Positions 45,299 to 56,413 of a DNA stretch of 64,000 nucleotides are shown here, in pieces (within the stretch, counting starts at the first letter, position 1; every line of letters starts with the position of its first letter). The notes below the pieces were generated by a model. The model made no database searches, was not told the DNA's origin, and saw only the letters and a list, made by a program, of their open reading frames with translations. Both the position numbers and the translations under genes were made by a program. Source of the stretch: Leptolyngbya ohadii IS1. GTDB lineage: Bacteria; Cyanobacteriota; Cyanobacteriia; Elainellales; Elainellaceae. Location of the stretch: assembly GCF_002215035.1 (NCBI RefSeq), contig NZ_NKFP01000001.1, forward strand, positions 1,361,501-1,425,500. The letters are read 5' to 3'.

Positions 45299-45715
45299 CT
45301 AGCTGCCGATCGCCAATCTTCCAGCATCAACTGACTTTGTACCGTCTACTTCGCTAGCGACTTCCACCAGGCGATCGAATGTTTCCTGATCCGGCACAGA
45401 TCCCTCTAGAACAATTCTGCTGCCGTCCTGCTTCAGCGTTGCAGTCTCTACCGATCGCAGTTCAGGAATTGCATCGAATGCGGCTGCAACTCGTTTTGCC
45501 AAACCCTGAACGTCAAATTCTCCTTCCAACCCCATTTTTTCCGGCACGACTGGAGGTTCATGCTGTCCCGCTTTTTCCCGCAGATCCCAGTCATATTGAC
45601 CCGTCAGCCCAGGACTCATCTGCGAGCCTTGGACACTGCTGCTCCGCTTCATCTTCATCTGCTGCGCTTCTGTACCAGGTGATTCTATGCCGAACAGTCT
45701 TTGTAACCATCCCAT
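45299..45715 (-). CDS. BON-domain protein
   Basis: The 138-residue protein has an N-terminal polar, low-complexity half and a C-terminal BON domain (about 67-135: LAKRVAAAFDAIPEL, IVLEGSVPDQETFDRLVEVA). BON domains bind membranes or ligands and are common in stress-induced periplasmic or cytosolic proteins such as OsmY and LysM-BON proteins. No signal peptide is seen. GGAGGA lies just before the ATG. It is downstream of the rhodopsin gene on the same strand, but a 379-base gap with repeats makes co-transcription uncertain. Confidence 0.8.
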   Translation of the reverse strand: MGWLQRLFGIESPGTEAQQMKMKRSSSVQGSQMSPGLTGQYDWDLREKAGQHEPPVVPEKMGLEGEFDVQGLAKRVAAAFDAIPELRSVETATLKQDGSRIVLEGSVPDQETFDRLVEVASEVDGTKSVDAGRLAIGS

Positions 45716-46094: not shown

Positions 46095-46919
46095 TTACAG
46101 ATTCTTGGAGAGAACTCTTGGTCTTCTACGCGATCGCCTGGGCTGTCCAAACGGTGAGATTCCGTTCAGAAAATGCATTGTGCGGCTCACAAACTCTTCC
46201 TCTGCGCTTTGCGCTTCTCGATGTCCTAAACTCCGTAATCCATTTAAATCGAGGAAGCTAAACACAACCTTTGAGAAAAAGGGAACGAGGCAGAACAAAA
46301 AGGTATCCACGTTCTGATCAAACAGACGCAATCCAGAAGGACCCGTAATCCAGATTAGCGGATAGCAAATCCAGGTGATAGTAAAGAAAGTGGTGAGTCC
46401 GTTGTAGAAGCTGGCTAACTCCGCATCGCCCCTGGTTTTATCGCGCAGAGGTCCCCAGATGCCCCACAGCACAACCAAAAACGCGACACAGCCGATCGTG
46501 TACCACAGATACCGCACCCAGGGAACATCAGAAAGGTCAGCGATTAAGCCTGTGACAATCACAATCACCTGCGTTGCCATCAGGGAAAAGATCAGTGTCC
46601 AGTCCTTGGATTTGTGGTGGTGCATTGCCGTCCAGGACAGCGACATCAGAAGCAGTGGGGTTGTCACGATCCAGTCGCAGTAGCGGGCGAAGTGGGTGAT
46701 TTGCCCTGCAATTTCAATCTTGCCTTGCTCCAGTCCGTCTCCGCTGGTTGGCAGCGTCATGAGCAGATACATTAAGCCCGACCAGAGGGGAATAAAGGTT
46801 GCAACAAAGTATTCCAGTCGGGGAATCCCACGCGGATTTCGACCGAGTAGGGCAAAGTAAATTGCGCCGATCGACATCCCGCCAATATAGAGCCAATGCC
46901 AAAGACTCTGCCAATCCAT
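46095..46919 (-). CDS. Microbial rhodopsin, Anabaena-sensory-rhodopsin-like
   Basis: The 274-residue, seven-helix retinal protein has helix C RYCDWIVTTPLLLMSLSW and helix G FCLVPFFSKVVFSFLDL, with the Schiff-base Lys217. In bacteriorhodopsin (BR) numbering it keeps Asp85 (Asp82) and Thr89 (Thr86), has Ser at Asp96 (Ser93), Pro at Asp212 (Pro213), Ser and Asp at Glu194 and Glu204 (Ser195, Asp205), and keeps Trp182 (Trp183). This set, with the same spacing, is the signature of Anabaena sensory rhodopsin, a photochromic sensor, not a pump. AAGGAG supports the ATG. The C-terminal tail is Arg-rich (RRSRRRPR). No gene for the soluble transducer ASRT is adjacent. It is divergent from the regulator at 47574. 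Confidence 0.93.
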   Translation of the reverse strand: MDWQSLWHWLYIGGMSIGAIYFALLGRNPRGIPRLEYFVATFIPLWSGLMYLLMTLPTSGDGLEQGKIEIAGQITHFARYCDWIVTTPLLLMSLSWTAMHHHKSKDWTLIFSLMATQVIVIVTGLIADLSDVPWVRYLWYTIGCVAFLVVLWGIWGPLRDKTRGDAELASFYNGLTTFFTITWICYPLIWITGPSGLRLFDQNVDTFLFCLVPFFSKVVFSFLDLNGLRSLGHREAQSAEEEFVSRTMHFLNGISPFGQPRRSRRRPRVLSKNL

Positions 46920-47573
46920 CCGCTGTTTCTCCTTGTTAGTTAAAAATAGATTTATCGCTGTTGAATTTGTCGCTGTTGAATTTGATGATCAGTCAGGTCG
47001 AGAAGGGTCTGCCATAATGGTGTTAATTTTTACCCCTTGCTACAGAAGAAATCGCAATTCTGCCTCTATCCATTGGGTGAACCATTGACTAAACCATTGG
47101 ATGAATTATGAGAAATTTATCTGATCATTAACTTCTTGATAGGTCTTTCAGTATTAAGCATTCTACGTGAATGTGATATAAAAATGACAGTATGATTGCC
47201 TTAACAAAATTAGAAGTTTCTCTCATTTAATCTGTCTACATCAGGCATTTTGGACTTGCTTTGCTGCTGTTTATAGAGCGATCCTTTCTGTCTTGTATTT
47301 GAGGTGCAGGGATGGAACTCTGTACGGGGAGAAAGCCCCATACTCCCTTTCCCACCAATCATTTGTGATTGCTATAGTTCTCATCTGTTTTTTATGACAT
47401 CTACTCTTGGCGAGTTTAAGGGCGAGTTTAAGGAGGTTTGCGAACTGTTTATTTCTATCGCGAAGCGTCTGTTAATTAATGAAGATTGCCCTAATGGGGA
47501 GTGCCTTTCCTACCATTTTCATACCTTTAAATGGGCATAATATTGTGGAGTGTTATGGGGCAGGTAGTCGGTC
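46920..47573. other. Long divergent intergenic region upstream of the rhodopsin
   Basis: These 654 bases are AT-rich and carry no convincing gene. Immediately upstream of the rhodopsin (46950-46985) the unit TCGCTGTTGAATTTG occurs twice. An open stretch at 47304-47540 has no ribosome-binding site or recognisable similarity. The region is unusually long for this gene-dense window and may hold complex, for instance light- or colour-dependent, promoters (speculation). Confidence 0.5.
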
Positions 47574-49559
47574 ATGAAAATTCTACTGGTGGAGGATGAT
47601 TCATTTACGAGGGAAGCGATCGCCGCAATGTTGACCTCGCATCACCACGCAGTCGATCAGGCTAACGATGGGCAGATGGGGTTAGAGCTGGTGAGCCTGT
47701 GGAATTATGATCTGATTCTGCTGGATGTTGACCTTCCGAAGCTGACCGGAATCCAGCTTTGCAAACAGCTTCGATCGCAGGGATGTACAGTGCCGATCCT
47801 GATGTTGACCGTTCACGGTTCCGATGAGTCTATTGTTCAGGGTTTAGACGCAGGTGCCGACGATTATGTCGTGAAGCCCTGCGAACCCGCTCAACTTCTG
47901 GCACGAATCCGGGCGATCTCTCGACGGGGGGGCACTGTTGTTCCCTCAGCCCTGTTGACCTGGGGCAATCTCAGTCTCGATCCCGCTGCTGCCGAAGTCA
48001 CCTATCATCAACAGCCCATTTCCTTAAGCGCCAAGGAATACAGTCTGCTGGAGCTATTCCTGCGTCATCCCAAACAGATCTTCAACCGGGATGCCATTCT
48101 CGATCGCCTCTGGTCAATTGATGCAACGCCCACAGAAAAGGCCGTGACGAATCTGGTAAAAGACCTGCGACACAAGCTTAAAGCTGGAGGAATGGCTGAA
48201 GAAATCGTGGCGACGGTTTATGGTTTGGGCTACCGCCTGACGGAAGAACCCCAAAAGTTTGCCCTATCCGACTCAGAACCGTTACGGTTTGCCCCAGAGT
48301 CTTTGGCACAGGAGCCTCTATCCCAGAACGGGGAGCGGCAGATAAATGAGCAGTGGGACAAATGGCAGAATGGAGCAGCCCAGCTAGCAGCCCGATTTCA
48401 GGCATCTCTGGAGCAGCGACTTGCAGTTTTAGAAGCGGGAGTTCAAGCTGCCCAGACTAATACCCTGGATGACGATCGCCGCCGAGCTGCAAAAGCAGAG
48501 GCACACCGTTTGGCAGGGGCGTTAGGCACATTTGGCTATGAGCAGGGGTCGGTTCTGGCACGAGCGATCGAACAAATCCTTGAAAAAAAAGTACCGGTAC
48601 GGCAAAAACACCTTTCCCAACTGTCCCAGCTTCTAACAGACCTGAAACAAAGCCTGGCTCAACCCGCTACTTCGCCCCAATTTATGTCACCTCAGGGGCA
48701 ACCTTCGGAGCAGCCTTCCGCTTCAGCCGCTGCGCTACCGCAGGATATTGTCATTCTTGTGCTTGATGCTGATCCCCACTTCACGCCCGATTTGAAGAAA
48801 CTGCTGCCCCAAGCCATTCAGACGATTCATGCGCGAGATTGGACAACAGCGTTTAGCCAGAATCTAGACAGTTCTCCAGCGCTCATTTTACTCAACCTCG
48901 ATTGGGTGAAAGCACCGGACGGCATGAGCCAGTGGCATCGCCTCAAACGAACCTATCCCGATGCAAAAGTGCTGATTCTTGCAGACCAGGATCACCTGCC
49001 AGATCGGGTGCTTGCTGCTCAACTTGGAAGCGATCGCTACATTGTAAAAACCGCAGAGCGAGGCGATCTCTCCGCCATGATGACCCAGGTTATTACCCAG
49101 TTTGGGGTGCAGACAAGGTGTGCCCAGGTTCTCATCCTGGATGACGATAAAACGTTCCTGAGGCTTCTGACCCATCTGCTAAAACCCTGGGGACTGGAAG
49201 TGACTGGACTCTCCGATCCCACTCAGTTCTGGGATCTTCTAACTACGGTTAACCCTGACCTGCTTTTACTGGATGTGGAGATGCCAGGGTTCAGCGGACT
49301 GGAACTGTGCCGGGTTGTGCGACAGGATGCCTACTACGGCGATATGCCGATTCTAGTGATTACCGCCCATATCGATCGTGAGTGGGTTCAGCAGGTCTTT
49401 GCCGCCGGAGCCGATGATATGATCACTAAGCCAGTCGTTGGTCCAGAACTGGTAACACGAGTTCTCAGCCGCATAGAACGATCGCGATCTCGGCAGCGAC
49501 TCGATCAGCTGCATCGCCTGAACGCTTTGTCCAGCAGTACGGGGGACAAACCTGGATAG
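47574..49559 (+). CDS. Multidomain response regulator, REC-wHTH-HPt-REC-REC
   Basis: The 661-residue protein has a receiver with Asp51 (LILLDVDLP) and an OmpR-type winged helix (about 130-222, LSAKEYSLLELFLRH, GLGYRLTEE). A histidine phosphotransfer domain (about 255-350, His in AEAHRLAGALGTFG) follows, then a degenerate receiver whose acceptor Asp is Asn (LILLNLDW) and a canonical receiver (LLLLDVEMPGFSG, MITKPVV). One polypeptide can thus receive, relay and bind DNA. This architecture is known in cyanobacteria. It is divergent from the rhodopsin gene, and three receiver-only genes lie just downstream. Confidence 0.92.
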   Translation: MKILLVEDDSFTREAIAAMLTSHHHAVDQANDGQMGLELVSLWNYDLILLDVDLPKLTGIQLCKQLRSQGCTVPILMLTVHGSDESIVQGLDAGADDYVVKPCEPAQLLARIRAISRRGGTVVPSALLTWGNLSLDPAAAEVTYHQQPISLSAKEYSLLELFLRHPKQIFNRDAILDRLWSIDATPTEKAVTNLVKDLRHKLKAGGMAEEIVATVYGLGYRLTEEPQKFALSDSEPLRFAPESLAQEPLSQNGERQINEQWDKWQNGAAQLAARFQASLEQRLAVLEAGVQAAQTNTLDDDRRRAAKAEAHRLAGALGTFGYEQGSVLARAIEQILEKKVPVRQKHLSQLSQLLTDLKQSLAQPATSPQFMSPQGQPSEQPSASAAALPQDIVILVLDADPHFTPDLKKLLPQAIQTIHARDWTTAFSQNLDSSPALILLNLDWVKAPDGMSQWHRLKRTYPDAKVLILADQDHLPDRVLAAQLGSDRYIVKTAERGDLSAMMTQVITQFGVQTRCAQVLILDDDKTFLRLLTHLLKPWGLEVTGLSDPTQFWDLLTTVNPDLLLLDVEMPGFSGLELCRVVRQDAYYGDMPILVITAHIDREWVQQVFAAGADDMITKPVVGPELVTRVLSRIERSRSRQRLDQLHRLNALSSSTGDKPG

Positions 49560-49765: not shown

Positions 49766-50143
49766 ATGTCTAAAAATATTCTGATTATTGACGATGAACA
49801 AGACCTGCGTGAGCTGGTGCAGCTTTCGCTCAACTGTTTTACGAATTGGCAGGTACAAACGGCGGCAACGGGGGCAGAAGGAATTCAGAAGGCGATCGCC
49901 CACCCCTTCGATGCCATTTTGCTGGATATTTCCATGCCGAATATGAACGGATTCCAGGTCTTTGAACAGCTGCAATCGTACAGCGCAACCCAGGCTATCC
50001 CGGTGATTCTGCTAACGGCAAAGGTGCAGCCAAACGATCGCCGTCGATTTCTGGAGATGAACGTTGCTGGCATTATTACAAAACCATTTGCCTCAGAAAC
50101 TATTGCTGCCCACGTTGCCGAACTCCTGGGATGGCAGACGTAA
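49766..50143 (+). CDS. Receiver-only response regulator
   Basis: The 125-residue CheY-like protein has DDE at 9-11, phospho-acceptor Asp54 (AILLDISMPNMNG), switch Thr84 (VILLTAK) and Lys (GIITKPFA). It is a close relative of the proteins at 51021-51392 and 50235-50699, all three ending in LLGW or VLGW. It probably acts as a phosphate shuttle for a nearby hybrid kinase or the HPt regulator upstream. No DNA-binding domain. Confidence 0.9.
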   Translation: MSKNILIIDDEQDLRELVQLSLNCFTNWQVQTAATGAEGIQKAIAHPFDAILLDISMPNMNGFQVFEQLQSYSATQAIPVILLTAKVQPNDRRRFLEMNVAGIITKPFASETIAAHVAELLGWQT

Positions 50144-50234
50144 AGTGAATATTGTCGCGGGTTCTTGCAGAGTCATGCTGGATCATTGTGCAAATGATCT
50201 GTATGTTCTAACCCGCTGGGTCAATCTGCTGCCA

Positions 50235-50699
50235 TTATGGCTTGTCCCAGCCTAGAAGCTCGCTAATCTTCTCCGGCAGCGTCACCGGATTGAAAGGTTT
50301 GGCGATCGCCCCCACGATTCCCAGCGATTCCATCTGTTGCAGGGTCATCCAATGAGCGGTGTCAATCAGCAGCAAAATTGGAGTGGCTTGGGTAAGCGGA
50401 TATCGTCTGATCTGCTGAACGATTCGCTTTTGAACAAAACTTAAACCATATTGACGGGACAACTGGGCATTAAAAAGAATGGCATCCGGCTTCTGCTGGA
50501 GCGGCAGAACCAATTCTTGCGCGGTCTGGGACACAGAAACAATTTGCCAGCCTGCAAGATGCTCCAGGCAGACGCCTATAATTTGCTCAATATCTGCGTC
50601 GGCACGCTCGTTCACCAACAGAATGAGGCGAGAAGAAAGTGATGAGGCGGCGACGTCTCCTGTGAAGGCTCGAATATTGTGTAATTTCCAGAAAGCCAT
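50235..50699 (-). CDS. Degenerate receiver-only protein (pseudo-receiver)
   Basis: The 154-residue protein has a receiver-like fold from about residue 23. The acidic pair is Asn30/Glu31 (LLVNERAD), the acceptor Asp is Asn77 (AILFNAQLS) and the Thr segment is altered (ILLLIDTAH), although the Lys (AIAKPFN) is kept. It is unlikely to be phosphorylated. It shares the C-terminal pattern with the two neighbouring receiver-only genes and probably arose from the same ancestor. Possible role as an anti-regulator or scaffold is inference. The first 20 residues may not be translated. Confidence 0.75.
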   Translation of the reverse strand: MAFWKLHNIRAFTGDVAASSLSSRLILLVNERADADIEQIIGVCLEHLAGWQIVSVSQTAQELVLPLQQKPDAILFNAQLSRQYGLSFVQKRIVQQIRRYPLTQATPILLLIDTAHWMTLQQMESLGIVGAIAKPFNPVTLPEKISELLGWDKP

Positions 50700-51020
50700 C
50701 GCTGTAGCCCGGTGCTCATTTGAGGGGTGATCATTGGCTGACCGATATTATTTGCCGACCGATCCTCTGCCGACTCACAATATCGCTATAGCCCGTTTAT
50801 AGTTACGTTAAAACTTATAGTTACGTTAAAACAAGAAATATAGGGGTTGTACCTTCTATCGGCTACCTGGGAATCGCCCATAGGAGGCATATATATACAC
50901 GAAAATCGCCCGTAGGGGCACAACGAATACACTCTGTTCTGGATTCAATTCTCATACAATACGGCAGTTATATGACAAAACTGTAAGAAACCGATAAGCA
51001 ATCTGCGCTTTACGCTAACT
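50700..51020. other. Intergenic region with short duplication
   Basis: A 16-17-base unit, ATAGTTACGTTAAAAC, is duplicated at about 50799-50831. ATCGCCC(A/G)TAGG appears twice near 50874-50915. No gene is supported. Confidence 0.5.
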
Positions 51021-51392
51021 TCACCAACCTAAAACTTTTGCCACTTGCTGCCAAACCCCGATCGGATCAAAGGGTTTTGTAATGACTCCAGCAATCCCCA
51101 TTTCTGCAAAGCGGCGATGATCGTTAGGGAGGATCTTTGCCCTCAGCAGAATCACCGGAATCGATCGCGTCAGCGGATCAGACTGAAGCTGCTCAAATAC
51201 CTGAAAGCCATCCATATCGGGCATAGAAATATCGAGCAGAATGGCGTCCGGAGCATTCGTTCTTGCCTGGCTAATGCCTTCTATACCGCTGTCTGCTGTC
51301 ATGGTTTCCCAGCCAGTAATCTTGCGAATCGCAACCTGGATAAAAGCCTGAATTGCCTGGTCGTCGTCAATCAGAAGAATCTTCTGGGTCAT
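51021..51392 (-). CDS. Receiver-only response regulator with Thr-to-Arg change
   Basis: The 123-residue CheY-like protein has DDD at 9-11, Asp54 (AILLDISMPDMDG) and Lys (GVITKPFD), but the switch Thr/Ser at position 84 is Arg (VILLRAK). It starts 9 bases after the end of the 7-PAS kinase frame, so it is in that operon and probably the cognate partner. The Arg could lock or alter the output conformation. Its paralogue at 49766 keeps Thr here. Confidence 0.88.
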   Translation of the reverse strand: MTQKILLIDDDQAIQAFIQVAIRKITGWETMTADSGIEGISQARTNAPDAILLDISMPDMDGFQVFEQLQSDPLTRSIPVILLRAKILPNDHRRFAEMGIAGVITKPFDPIGVWQQVAKVLGW

Positions 51393-51652
51393 GGTTTCCG
51401 ACTATTGTTCCAGAGCGATCGGCAGCGTGAAATAAAAGGTACTTCCCTGTCCGATCTCACTCTCCGCCCAAATGTCTCCCCCATGCTGCTGCACAATACT
51501 CCTGCAAATTGCCAATCCCAGTCCTGTTCCTCCTTTCTGGCGCGAATCGGAAGAATCGACCTGCTGAAACCGTCCAAAAATAGACTCTAGCTTCTCTGAA
51601 GGAATGCCGCGCCCTTCGTCGGTGACAGAGAAGAGGAGGTGGGGGGGGAGGA

Positions 51653-51708
51653 GTGGATGGGTGGATGGGTGGATGGGTGGATGGGTGGATGGGTAAGGGG
51701 GTAAATGG
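51653..51708. repeat. 8-bp tandem repeat GTGGATGG x5 inside kinase gene
   Basis: Five exact copies (51653-51692) followed by two diverged units (GTAAGGGG, GTAAATGG). Because 8 is not a multiple of 3, each gain or loss of a unit changes the reading frame of the kinase. A run of eight G lies just before, at 51641-51648. Confidence 0.95.
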
Positions 51709-51712
51709 GTGC

Positions 51713-51768
51713 TTCCCCTGCTCCCCTGCTCCCCTGCTCCCCTGCTCCCCCGCTCCCCTGCTCCCCTG
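51713..51768. repeat. 8-bp tandem repeat CTCCCCTG x7 inside kinase gene
   Basis: Six CTCCCCTG units, one with a substitution, preceded by a TTCCCCTG variant. It encodes the GAGEQGSRG-like low-complexity stretch between the N-box and G1-box of the histidine kinase ATPase domain. Confidence 0.95.
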
Positions 51769-54700
51769 CCCACAGTTCTGCCTTCAGCCATACCGTTCCG
51801 CCTGCTGGAGAAAACTTAATGGCGTTGCTCAGGAGATTCGTCAGGGTTTGCACGATCGCATCCGGGGCTGCCTGAATCTGGGCTGCCAGGGGATCTAATT
51901 GCAGTTCAACGCTGGCTTGGTCAGCTAAAACCTGTACAGCATCGATCGCCTGCTCCATCAAATCGGTGATACAGCAGACTTCCTTCATTAGAACTGCCTT
52001 ACCCGACTCCAGCCGCTCCAGATCGAGAATGTCGTTTACCAGACGCACCAGCCGATCGGTACTGCGGAGGGCAAGGTTGAGCATTTGCTGCGCGGTTTCT
52101 GGCTCGTCGTTCAGCACGCCTGCATTCAGAAGTCCCAGGGAGCCGCGAATCGAGGTGAGGGGAGTTCGCAGTTCATGGCTCACAACGGAAATAAATTCAT
52201 CCTTGATCACGTCCAGCCGATGCCGCTCGCTCATATCCACAATTTGAGCAATCAGATAGAGGGGACGATCGTCCGGATCGCGCATGAGGGCAAGATTCAG
52301 CAGTCCCCAAACGGAATGCCCCTCTCGGCGTAGAAATCGTTTTTCAACCTGATAGCCTGGGATCTCTCCTGCCATCATTTGTTCCATCGCAGCCAGACCC
52401 AGCTTGTGATCCTCAGGATGAACAATGTCTTGCAGCCGCAGGGCGAGCAGTTCTTCTGCGGAGTAGTCCAGCATTTGGCACAGGCTGTCATTGACCTCCT
52501 GAAATCCGCCCGCCAGCGACACCAGTGCCATCCCTGCGGTAATTGTGTCAAACGCGCCTTTGAACTTTCGCTCGCTTTGGCGCAGGGCAAGTTCTGTCTG
52601 TCTGCGATCGGTAATGTCTCTGGCAGCGGCATAGATCAGATTACCGACCGGGAACGATCGCCACTCAATCCAGCGATAGGAGCCGTCATGGCAGCGGTAG
52701 CGGTTCACAAAGTTGAGGCTAATGTTTTGGTCTGCCAGGATTGAAATTTCACTCAGCGTTTTTTCAACATCGTCGGGATGGACAAAATCCAGGAAGCGGT
52801 TTCCCTCCAGTTCCGCCAGGCTGTAACCGAGCGTTTCTTCCCACTGCTGGTTAAGGCGGCGAAAACAGCCGCTCGTATCGGCAATGCAGAGGAGATCCAG
52901 GGCAACGGTGAAAAAGCGATCGAGTTCTTCTGTTTTTTGCTGAAGCGCCAGTTCGATCTGTTTGCGATTGGTGACATCTTGAATAATGCCGTGAGCGGCA
53001 ACATTGCCGTTTTCGCGCTGCTCTAGCAGGGACTCCGCATGGAGCCACTTCAGCCTGCCGGAAGGCGTAATAATTCGCCACTCGTGCACAAATGGAGTCA
53101 GGTTTGCCGCACAGTAGCCTGCGATAGCATCGTAATCTTCGATATCTTCGGGATGAAATTGACGATAGATCAGGGAGAAATCTGCGTAGGCTTGCTCCTG
53201 AGTCAGCTCGTGAATTTCTTCGACGGCTGCGCTGACGTACTCAAAATAGGGCATCCCGTCGGGCGGTATAACAACTGTGTACAGCACTCCTGGCACATGG
53301 GTTGCCAAATGCTGAAGCCGGGCTTCACTCTGCTGCAAAGCTGCTGCTGCCTGTCTGCGTTCTTCTTCAACGCGCTTGCGATCGGTGACATCTAACGCAA
53401 CTCCAAACCACAGGACATCCTGATTCGGTAATGCTTCAGGACGGGCATAGGTCTGCACCCACTTAATTTTGCCAGAGGGCGTAATGCATCTCCACTCATA
53501 GTAGAACGGTTCTAGGATGGCAACGCTCTGCAAATAGGCTGCGGTGTAGCCTGGGGTATCGTCAGGGTGAAACATCTCAAACACAACATTGGGGTCTGCC
53601 ACGATCGCCTCCGGCGGGACTTCCAGCAGCTCCGTCACAAACGCACTGATATAGGTAAACCGGACGAGCGGGCTATCGGTTCGACCCATAGAGGTGTAGA
53701 GAACACCCGGTAAGGTAGCCGCAATTTTTTGAAATCGGGCTTCGCTGGCAGCAAGCTTCTGTTCGCTCAGTTTGCGATCGGTGACATCCAGGGTTGTTCC
53801 CATCAGCCGTGCCATGTTCCCTGCACGATCAAAAACGGGTTCGCCCTTGGCAGTGATGTAGCGCGTAGAGCCATCTGCCAGCCTGATCCGAAAATCCTGT
53901 TCTGCGGGCTGTGCCTGAGTGAGGCGAGCGACAAAGGATTCAAAAACAGCCCTATCTTCTGGGTGAACAAATCGAGTCACAACTTCTTCAAGGTTAGGCG
54001 GCGGCTGATGGGAGTCGCATTGATAAATCCGATAAAGCTCCTCTGACCAGAAGGTGGTTTGGGTGGCTACCTCATGTTCCCAGCTGCCGACATGGGCGAC
54101 TCTTTGTGCCTCCCGCAGCGCGGCTTCACTCTGTTGCAGGGCAAGTTCTGCCTGTTTACGATCGGTAATATCAACTGAAATCGCTGTCAGGTTCCAGCAC
54201 TGCTGCACCTCATCCCAGGTGGAATTATTGGTTTGCGAGACCCAGCGCAGATGTCCCTCCCTGTGCCGCAGCCGATATTCATAGGTGTAGGTTGTTCCTG
54301 CAAAAATGTGGGCAAAGACCCGGTCTGCACATGCCTGCCAGTCTTCTGAGTTAATCAGACTGAGCCAGAGATGGCTGTCCTGGGTTAAGGCTTCAGCGCT
54401 GTATCCACAGAGCAACTCAGTTCCCGCAGACACCTGATCGATAATCCAGTTCCCGTTTTCAAACACCCGCATCCGGGCAATGCCAGCGATCACGCTATTC
54501 AGGATGTCCTTCGTTCTGGATTCCGATTCCTGGAGCGCCAGTTCAAGCTGTTTCCGATCGCTAATGTCGGTCAACCGGATCAGGTGCATAGTTTCTCCAG
54601 CCACCGTGATTGGCTTTGCTGCCAGGTTCGCCCAAAAACTTTTGCCCGATTGGGTGATGTACTCTATCTCCCGGCTCCAGTAGCCCTTCTTTGCCACATC

Positions 54701-56342
54701 AGATCCAATGGTATTCACTTCCTCCTGGGTAAAGGGATGCTTTTGCAGTGAAGTTCCCAGCGTCCCAATTAGCTCAGCTTTACTGGCTCGCTCAAACATT
54801 GCGACCGCCCGCTGATTGCAGTCCACAATCAGGGTAGAGGGTGGGGTACTGACCAGGAAGATCGCGTCGGTCGATTCGTTAAAGATGACTTCGCGCAGAT
54901 CTCTTGCCTGTGCTAGCTCGGCGGTGCGTCTAGTAACCTGCTGTTTCAGCTCTTGCTCGTAGTCTGTTCGCAGTTGAAAAGAGAGCCGCAGCTGTTCTGC
55001 CATCTGGCGAAAACTCTCGGATAGCTGCTTTACCTCCCCCAAGCCCGTGACGGGAACTTCATAATCGAACTGGTTTTGGGCAATGCGATCGGCGGCAAGG
55101 CTGAGTTGTCCTAGGGGGTCGGTAATGCGACGGGCAGCCAGTACCCCCAAAGCACTGGTCGCCGCCAGAGTGCCCAGGCACAGCAAAGCAGTCCAGGCGT
55201 TTTGCGTCTGAATCCGCGTCATGAAATCTGATTCGGGAATGGTTGTCACCACGAGCCAGTCCAGCCCATAGTTGTCCCGATAGGGCGTGACCTGCACAAA
55301 CTGCTGCTGCCCCTCAACCCTCAGCCTGACCTGTTGCGAGGTCTGAATCTCGCTGAGGGTATTAAACTGCTGAAGTAAGCGCTGAGACACCGATCGCAGA
55401 ACCGGGTTTTGGCTATCGATCGCGGAGAGCTGGACAGGCTTGCCATTCACCTTCGCGGTTGCCGATGCCTCAGATGGATCGGAGGTTGCAATCAACTTTC
55501 CCGATCGCTCCACGATAAAGAGCTGTCCTCCAGGGGAAAAGTGTAGTGTGTGAAGAAATCGGCTAATTTCGGGCAGCAGATAAGTCGAAGTAAACAATCC
55601 TTGAAATTTGCCTGCTGAATCGTAGGCGGGTGCAACCGCCATAACCTGTAAAGCGGGTACGATCGCACTAATGGATACGGGAGTCCAGTGCTGTTGCCCA
55701 GCGGATTTTGCCTGCTTATACCAGTCCAGATTGCTAAAGTCCCCCTTCGCGGTGTAAAGCAGTTGCTGCGGCTTTCCCTGGGAATCGACTGAATAAAACT
55801 GTCGCTGATTCAGGCTTCTAACGCTAAAGTACAGCGTTTTCATGGGAATGGGTTTTCCCGTCACCCTGGTCGCAAAAGTTTGTTCTTCCTGGGACAAGAT
55901 GCGCCCATAGGTGAGACCAATTCCCCGATCGCGCCAGAACGCATTGGCAGGTAGCGCAGGGTTGAGAGCCATATGCTGCCAAAGCTGTTGCCGCAATTGT
56001 TCCGGGTTGCTCAGGTTTAGCATCCCCTGCTTTGCGGAAAGTTGATTGGCTGCTACAACCTGCTGAGGCTCTTGTAAGTAGCTGCTGAGGCGATCGCTCA
56101 CTCTTTCGGAGGTTTGCTGCAAAAGCTGGTTTGCCAGGGTCTCAATGGCTTGCTGTCCTGCCTGGTAGGAAAAATAGCCGACCAGTGCTGTCGCTCCTGT
56201 CGTTAGCAGCACAAAGGGAACCACCAGCATCCAGCGCAGCGGAATTTGTGCCGAGTCAATTTTCAGATTTGTCAGATAACGGAGCGAGGACATAGGCAAT
56301 CGTGAATGCGTCAGAGCAGGGAAGGGCGATCGGTATTCCAAC

Positions 56343-56400
56343 TTTTTGGCGCAATTTTTGGCGCAATTTTTGGCGCAATTTTGGCGCAATTTTTTGGCGC
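56343..56400. repeat. 12-bp tandem repeat TTTTTGGCGCAA x5
   Basis: Three exact 12-bp units followed by an 11-bp and a 12-13-bp variant, just upstream of the 7-PAS kinase start at 56293. An upstream frame through it would encode an NCAK repeat, so I do not include it in the gene. Confidence 0.88.
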
Positions 56401-56413
56401 ATAAAGTGCCCAC

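What the first reader, a model, noticed from the sequence alone, without database searches (positions are those of the whole stretch)
46095..46919. Anabaena-sensory-rhodopsin-like photoreceptor without an adjacent ASRT transducer
Helix C and helix G carry the full ASR residue set in BR numbering: Asp85, Thr89, Ser at 96 and Pro at 212. The spacing is the same as in ASR (11 from Asp to Ser, 4 from Pro to Lys, 135 from Asp to Lys). ASR in Nostoc PCC 7120 is co-transcribed with a soluble transducer, but none of the neighbours looks like ASRT. The closest genes are a BON protein downstream and a divergent REC-wHTH-HPt-REC-REC regulator upstream, so signalling may run through a different partner. 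The Arg-rich C-terminal tail is a candidate docking or DNA/RNA contact.
Basis: partly seen in the sequence, partly recalled or inferred. Interest (0 to 1): 0.8.

Follow-up and report, generated by a model that had tools for sequence, protein, structure and literature searches.

The report
Cyanobacterial sensory rhodopsin without ASRT partner
This is a genuine relative of the Anabaena light-sensing rhodopsin; lacking the textbook partner protein turns out to be normal for the family, while an arginine-rich tail is kept in most relatives and is the better candidate for how the signal leaves the protein.

Summary
Window 46095-46919(-) encodes a 274-residue rhodopsin with the ASR residue set (D82, T86, S93, P213, K217, at ASR's spacing). 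Its best solved relative is ASR 1xio, and a tree places it inside a cyanobacterial ASR clade, apart from chloride and xanthorhodopsin-type pumps. No ASRT (PF07100) was found in the 7.9-Mb genome, even at E up to 10.

The "orphan" reading is not surprising. Ugalde et al. 2011 already reported ASRT missing from other xenorhodopsin genomes. Here 10 of 55 cyanobacterial genomes reached through ASR-like loci have any ASRT match; at 6 loci it is next to ASR.

New here: ASR-ASRT adjacency needs at least 4 changes on the tree, tail length only 2. 50 of 59 cyanobacterial rows keep a long tail, 49 of those 50 basic, although tails are 30% identical against 72% for bodies. 41 of the 50 come from genomes without detected ASRT. 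This favours the tail as conserved output device.

The BON neighbour is not conserved; the divergent regulator is RppA-like, a weak candidate. The genome also has a 93%-identical ASR paralogue and a urease-operon CyHR-type rhodopsin. Light response and pumping remain untested.

The parts
46095..46919 (-). ASR-type rhodopsin gene, 274 aa, stop codon included; AAGGAG ribosome-binding-like site 9 bases before the ATG
46641..46676 (-). codons D82 to S93 of helix C (ASR D75, T79 and S86 equivalents)
   Evidence: alignment to 1xio
46269..46283 (-). codons P213 to K217 of helix G (ASR P206 and the retinal lysine K210)
46098..46232 (-). C-terminal tail, residues 230-274 (cytoplasmic by analogy with ASR)
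46158..46205 (-). predicted extra helix of the tail, residues 239-254 (block pLDDT 79, 87, 71)
   Evidence: AlphaFold2 model; amphipathicity calculation (not significant for this sequence taken alone)
46116..46139 (-). Arg cluster of the tail, residues 261-268 (RRSRRRPR)
47150..47228 (-). upstream block shared with the paralogue on contig C3 (74% over 84 columns); possible regulatory element
47574..49559 (+). divergent REC-wHTH-HPt-REC-REC response regulator, RppA-like N-terminal part; candidate partner, weak
45299..45715 (-). downstream gene with a sub-threshold BON match; linkage not seen elsewhere

Best explanation
The protein is a retinal-binding, ASR-type membrane photoreceptor. Inferred mechanism: light isomerises retinal on K217, the Schiff-base proton moves towards the cytoplasmic E36/D224 pair as described for ASR, and the cytoplasmic end rearranges. 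The change is passed on not through ASRT, of which the genome shows no trace, but through the protein's own C-terminal tail, a short helix (residues 239-254) followed by an arginine cluster (261-268). The tail most likely makes light-dependent contact with a negatively charged partner, DNA first, as proposed for ASR itself. Where ASRT is present it would be an optional addition. Shown here: residues, predicted fold, tree place, no detectable ASRT, conservation of a basic tail. Inferred: photocycle, signalling direction, DNA contact.
For: ASR residue set and predicted fold: closest solved structures are ASR 1xio and 4tl3. E36 is invariant and D224 at least 90% conserved over 51 sequences. Purifying selection on the body against the C3 paralogue: 79 synonymous and 8 non-synonymous codon differences. 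Tail: 50 of 59 non-redundant cyanobacterial rows have 36 or more tail residues; 49 of 50 have at least 4 Arg/Lys in the last 20, against 66 of 342 neighbouring proteins' C-termini; at least 4 Arg: 47 of 50 against 12 of 342; Arg plus Lys 29% against 9%; Arg:Lys 7.9 against 1.5. Charge is kept although tails are 30% identical and bodies 72%. 41 of the 50 long-tail rows (the window and its paralogue share one genome) come from genomes with no PF07100 match. ASRT adjacency needs 4 changes on the tree, tail length 2. Retinal supply is plausible: four RPE65-family matches in the genome.
Against: No functional data. The tail evolves fast: 13 synonymous and 12 non-synonymous codon differences between the two copies of this genome. 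A charged tail could serve membrane anchoring, oligomerisation or targeting as well as DNA contact. 9 of 59 cyanobacterial rows lack the tail, and 11 of 11 Hymenobacter rows have tails of 23 residues or fewer, so the photoreceptor core can persist without it. The membrane position makes direct DNA contact mechanically odd. The model gives the Arg segment low confidence (pLDDT 65 for residues 261-270), and the tail's best segment is not significantly amphipathic in this sequence (shuffle p 0.205). Rows are related by descent, so counts are not independent.
Confidence: 0.42

Rival explanations
1. It is a light-driven inward proton pump, like other xenorhodopsins; the tail is an accessory and no signalling partner is needed.
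For: The nearest solved non-ASR structures are the inward pump BcXeR (TM-score 0.96 by target length, 40% identity). The diagnostic helix-G proline and the cytoplasmic E36/D224 pair are present. One change (D217E) makes ASR itself pump inward (PMC3198991 text; title of 4tl3). The FurA paper suggests an energy role for ASR under iron limitation (PMC4005646, passages).
Against: The residue at the D217 position is Asp, as in wild-type ASR, said not to transport ions detectably (PMC7541481); but BcXeR has Asp there too, so this does not decide. Sequence and fold cannot separate the two functions. The tail, not present in the solved BcXeR chain and short in Hymenobacter, would have no role.
Confidence: 0.25
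2. It signals through a different protein partner, the divergent RppA-like regulator at 47574 or an RppB/RppA-type two-component system elsewhere.
For: The window's regulator scores over the RppA cut-off (266.6 bits against 250). A related response-regulator gene lies within 5 genes of ASR in 13 loci, the window included, of 75 with a called ASR gene. Of 9 other regulators scanned, 4 pass the RppA cut-off, 3 have RppA as best model but fall below it, 1 is of another type and 1 partial one gave no match. The C3 paralogue of this genome lies near such genes too. RppA is described as acting on photosynthesis gene transcription (PMC9321951 passages).
Against: The multi-domain regulator itself is not a recurrent ASR neighbour. 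654 bases separate the two start codons and the genes are on opposite strands. OmpR-type regulators are common in cyanobacteria (general knowledge), the loci are not independent, and no chance baseline was computed.
Confidence: 0.15
3. The tail is only a structural element: membrane-surface anchor, oligomer contact or targeting signal; the protein's output is unknown.
For: A predicted extra helix before the Arg cluster; the best tail segment is more amphipathic than shuffles at p<0.05 in 15 of 50 rows, where about 2.5 are expected. Acidic lipids would be adequate partners.
Against: The strong preference for Arg over Lys (7.9:1 against 1.5:1) fits phosphate or nucleic-acid contact better than a simple positive-inside role. 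A recalled report (Irieda et al. 2012, not read here) says the C-terminal arginines of ASR matter for its repressor effect.
Confidence: 0.18

Closest known systems
Anabaena sensory rhodopsin (ASR, alr3165, PDB 1xio)
   Same: Helix C and G residue set, cytoplasmic E36/D217 pair, fold, Arg-rich C-terminal tail
   Different: 59% identity in the structure alignment, longer B-C loop, N instead of H at the ASR 219 position, no ASRT found in operon or genome
Xenorhodopsins (BcXeR, PDB 7zmy)
   Same: Helix-G proline, fold
   Different: 40% identity; those are inward proton pumps and the solved chain has no long Arg tail
ASR-like rhodopsins of cyanobacteria listed as XeR in surveys (15 in PMC7541481, 35 in PMC11528372; passages)
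   Same: By the tree this protein would be counted there
   Different: The word 'transducer' does not occur in either main text; the passages I saw do not discuss the tail
Cyanobacterial halorhodopsins (SyHR, MrHR)
   Same: Microbial rhodopsin fold; one such relative occurs in this genome
   Different: About 30% identity by structure alignment to MrHR; outside the ASR clade in the tree

Membership tests
ASR-type (cyanobacterial xenorhodopsin) photoreceptor | Retinal-binding Lys in helix G and microbial-rhodopsin fold | tested here: met
   K217 invariant; Pfam PF01036 191.6 bits; model matches 1xio, TM-score 0.97 by target length
ASR-type (cyanobacterial xenorhodopsin) photoreceptor | Pro at the BR Asp212 position, named as diagnostic in PMC3198991 | tested here: met
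   P213, invariant in 51 sequences; paper text
ASR-type (cyanobacterial xenorhodopsin) photoreceptor | Asp, Thr and Ser at BR 85, 89 and 96 | tested here: met
   D82, T86, S93; the majority residue at the last position is Ala in relatives, also in the C3 paralogue
ASR-type (cyanobacterial xenorhodopsin) photoreceptor | Tree place with ASR and apart from pumps | tested here: met
   inside a 58-row cyanobacterial clade with ASR (SH-aLRT 87, partly unresolved inside; quick tree); CyHR and XLR rows outside; CyR and NaR rows not included; the window's 12-row subclade (99) is not ASR's own subclade
ASR-type (cyanobacterial xenorhodopsin) photoreceptor | Photochromism and lack of ion transport | not testable with these tools
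   needs expressed protein
ASR-ASRT signalling system | ASRT (PF07100) gene in the operon or at least in the genome | tested here: not met
   0 matches in the whole genome at E<=0.001 and at E<=10
Inward-pumping xenorhodopsin | Light-driven inward proton transport | not testable with these tools
   sequence and fold do not separate it from ASR
Cyanobacterial halorhodopsin or xanthorhodopsin-type pump | Tree place with CyHR or XLR rows | tested here: not met
   (two CyHR and two XLR rows)

The most novel reading that the evidence does not exclude
Across cyanobacteria the ASR family is a one-component, membrane-bound, light-gated regulator whose inherited output device is its own eighth-helix-plus-arginine tail. 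ASRT is a repeatedly gained or lost accessory. One natural clade has dropped the tail and, in part of its members, sits between a P-type cation ATPase and an RppA/RppB-like two-component system.
Probability: 0.28. Interest if true: 0.8.

Novelty: new member of a known kind. Interest (0 to 1): 0.42.

Why it matters
How ASR signals has been open for two decades. The usual answer rests on ASRT in one strain. A family-wide comparison shows that ASRT comes and goes while the arginine-rich tail mostly stays, which points experiments at the tail and supplies natural controls: ASRT-free species, a paralogue pair in one genome, and a naturally tail-less clade.

Tried and rejected
BON protein as partner: no relative at E<=1e-6 in the other loci then held and the Pfam match is below cut-off. 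Operon of ASR with the BON gene: 379 bases apart; promoter- and terminator-like sites are no more frequent than in shuffles, so undecided. Hidden ASRT homologue: none at E up to 10. Mobile origin: no close relative among plasmid records (9 records match, all under 60% identity) or phage records (none); whether contig C3 is a plasmid was not tested. Shared upstream motif across the family: the 80-bp block is clear only in the two copies of this genome and weak in L049. N in place of ASR H219 as the mark of ASRT loss: rejected, because many ASRT-free relatives keep His. Fold comparison as a test of pump against sensor: not informative. The key paper on ASR as transcriptional regulator is not held; what I say of it is recalled, and only its title was seen, in reference lists.

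Rows dropped before counts: the tree used 75 rows after leaving out re-fetched copies of the same loci, 14 identical sequences, weak matches (under 180 bits) and fragments under 220 aa, except that the partial rows L049 and L108 were kept. The 59 cyanobacterial rows include the window and its paralogue from one genome. In the tree input four rows (L012, L049, L070, L071) were not cut at the tail as intended; columns filled in under 30% of rows were dropped by the program. L056's start was set about 14 residues late. The row I labelled NsXeR is the 7zng chain, titled only xenorhodopsin; the titles of its siblings (7zmy and others) name BcXeR. Genomes reached through named loci have no completeness figure, so absence of ASRT in metagenome bins is weaker evidence. 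L082's genome was not held and is not counted for ASRT. Neighbour genes were called by a simple longest-ORF script and may include spurious frames.

Full report
What is there. The ORF at 46095-46919(-) encodes 274 residues. It matches Pfam Bac_rhodopsin with 191.6 bits. The best match in a set of 177,635 distinct PDB sequences is Anabaena sensory rhodopsin 1xio (E 3.6e-100, aligned over ASR residues 1-261), then two further ASR chains (one of them 4tl3, with Glu at the D217 position), then xenorhodopsin chains at E 5e-52. D82, T86, S93, P213 and K217 sit at the ASR positions D75, T79, S86, P206 and K210 with the stated spacings of 11, 4 and 135. E36 and D224, the counterparts of ASR E36 and D217, are invariant and at least 90% conserved respectively in 51 sequences. 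A review describes proton release to the cytoplasm through that pair (PMC3267196, passages). AlphaFold2 gives a confident model (mean pLDDT 90.5) whose best PDB match is 1xio (TM-score 0.97 by target length). The inward pump BcXeR fits almost as well (0.96), so the fold does not decide function.

Genome context. The genome holds three rhodopsins: this one; a paralogue on contig C3 (93% identical; 85% at the DNA level); and a CyHR-type rhodopsin on contig C4. ASRT (PF07100) was not found at E<=0.001 or at E<=10. Four RPE65-family matches could supply retinal. Between the two ASR copies the body has 79 synonymous and 8 non-synonymous codon differences, the tail 13 and 12: the body is under strong purifying selection, the tail is looser.

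How unusual is the missing ASRT? Among 98 related genomes (own included), 29 have a rhodopsin of any kind and 4 an ASRT; two of those four have no rhodopsin match (G068, G086), one has only rhodopsin fragments (G073) and one has ASR far from ASRT (G059). A scan of named genomes gave 75 ASR-like loci. Of 49 and 19 genomes behind those loci that were searched, 8 and 2 have an ASRT match. The second set includes 13 Hymenobacter genomes, none with a match, so 10 of 55 cyanobacterial genomes have one; in one of these (behind L122) the match is a fragment. At six loci ASRT lies directly next to the ASR gene on the same strand (L056, L059, L063, L065, L080, L116); at L116 the ASR frame is incomplete. 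This agrees with Ugalde et al. 2011, who found no ASRT in other xenorhodopsin genomes (PMC3198991), and goes beyond their inference that the pairing is specific to one strain. The orphan state is therefore normal and, in substance, already published.

Tree. With tails removed (four rows excepted, see Tried and rejected), 75 rows were placed by a quick search. The window protein and its paralogue fall in a 12-row subclade (SH-aLRT 99) of Leptolyngbya-like and related cyanobacteria. ASR itself falls in another subclade. Both lie in a 58-row cyanobacterial clade (87). The xenorhodopsin chain and 11 Hymenobacter rows group outside it, and CyHR and XLR rows further out. One cyanobacterial row (L010) branches before all of them, and many inner forks are unresolved. 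CyR and NaR pumps were not included as rows.

The tail. 50 of 59 cyanobacterial rows have a tail of 36 or more residues; 49 of these 50 have at least 4 Arg/Lys in the last 20 residues, and the exception has 3. Control: 66 of 342 neighbouring proteins' C-termini reach 4 Arg/Lys; for at least 4 Arg it is 47 of 50 against 12 of 342. Arg plus Lys make up 29% of the tail positions against 9% in neighbouring proteins, and Arg outnumbers Lys 7.9 to 1 against 1.5 to 1 (rows are related, so the Fisher p-value is not a true probability). This persists at 30% mean tail identity against 72% for bodies. The model shows a helix at 239-254 before the Arg cluster; amphipathicity beats shuffles at p<0.05 in 15 of 50 rows, but for the window's own tail p is 0.205. 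41 of the 50 long-tail rows come from genomes without an ASRT match, 6 have it adjacent (the 1xio ASR counted so from the literature), 2 have it elsewhere and 1 was not searchable. The fewest changes on the tree are 2 for tail length and 4 for ASRT adjacency; holding the ASRT-adjacent rows together is rejected (the group is defined by gene adjacency, but I had seen the tree, and the tree is a quick one). The simplest reading is that the tail, rather than ASRT, is the part selection keeps.

The tail-less exception. Nine cyanobacterial rows lack the tail: eight form one clade (100) and one is L010. At four of the clade's loci (L090, L094, L095, L108) the gene lies between a divergent P-type cation ATPase and an RppA/RppB-like two-component system. 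At L012, held with short flanks, a response regulator lies downstream on the same strand. Against this, no regulator was seen downstream at L087 and L088 (short contigs, other genes there) or within the short flank of L013. The kinase of L095 is closest to RppB (311.4 bits) but under its cut-off of 400. The C3 paralogue of this genome, which keeps the tail, lies near a similar set (ferric-reductase-like gene, regulator and kinase, P-type ATPase further off).

Neighbours of the window gene. The BON-like gene was not found at other loci. The divergent regulator scores above the RppA cut-off in its first part, but the multi-domain protein is not a recurrent neighbour. Other recurrent ASR neighbours within five genes are AI-2E family transporters (18 loci), DUF389 (14), ferric-reductase-like (12) and P-type ATPases (11), of 77 loci examined, 75 with a called ASR gene. 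None of these four is beside the window copy. No chance baseline was computed for these counts.

Regulation. In Nostoc PCC 7120 asr/asrt is listed as a FurA target (PMC12282138, passages) and asr as strongly induced under iron limitation (PMC4005646, passages). I did not find a family-wide upstream element. The window and C3 copies share an 80-bp block about 230-310 bp upstream.

Verdict. The orphan status is ordinary. The useful result is comparative: the tail is the inherited candidate effector. Direct DNA contact remains a hypothesis; as I recall, it was proposed for ASR by Irieda et al. 2012, which I could not read. Literature searched for prior statements about tail conservation or ASRT distribution: no paper; listings, and passages of the papers named above. 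None that I saw describes the tail analysis, but the library lacks most subscription papers.

Noticed in passing
L003/L038 (G000:C4:9485-10192, minus strand); L040:8577-9299 in the congener G001: A CyHR-type rhodopsin with Thr-Ser-Thr in helix C, where the solved CyHR chains shown have Thr-Ser-Asp, lies between ureF- and ureG-like genes; in the congener genes that look like a urea ABC transporter follow (ure and urea-transporter names are mine, read from the translations). The relatives in G004, G017, G018 and G020 have the Asp. 6 of 36 family genomes, own included, have such a relative at E<=1e-40; no paper on it was seen (listing only).
   Followed up: partly
L037:12766-13587(-) (contig C3 of the same genome): Second ASR copy, 93% identical, with Pro194 and Gly196, nearly invariant elsewhere, changed to Thr and Cys, and Ala instead of Ser at position 93.
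   Followed up: partly
L090, L094, L095, L108: Tail-less ASR loci with the order P-type ATPase, ASR, a small 133-aa reading frame on the opposite strand (not called at L090), RppA-like regulator, RppB-like kinase; not seen at L087 and L088 of the same clade.
   Followed up: partly
L049, L058, L068, L100, L105, L108, L116, L118, L121, L122: ASR reading frames that look split or cut short (several ORFs or partial matches at one place), suggesting frequent decay of ASR genes, or sequencing and assembly errors.
   Followed up: no
L103, L104, L106, L107, L109-L115, L118, L121: Hymenobacter (Bacteroidota) carry ASR-like xenorhodopsins, 46-51% identical to the window protein; the 11 in the tree have short tails, and none of the 13 genomes has an ASRT match.
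   Followed up: partly
window 47150-47228: Upstream block conserved between the two ASR copies of this genome and weakly in L049, possibly a regulatory site.
   Followed up: partly
window 49766-56413: Three further single-domain response-regulator-like genes follow the multi-domain regulator (49766-50143 +, 50235-50699 -, 51021-51392 -), then a large multi-sensor kinase-like gene (51587-56413 -). Only the first two were scanned; the second is below the Pfam cut-off; the last two are judged from the translation.
   Followed up: no
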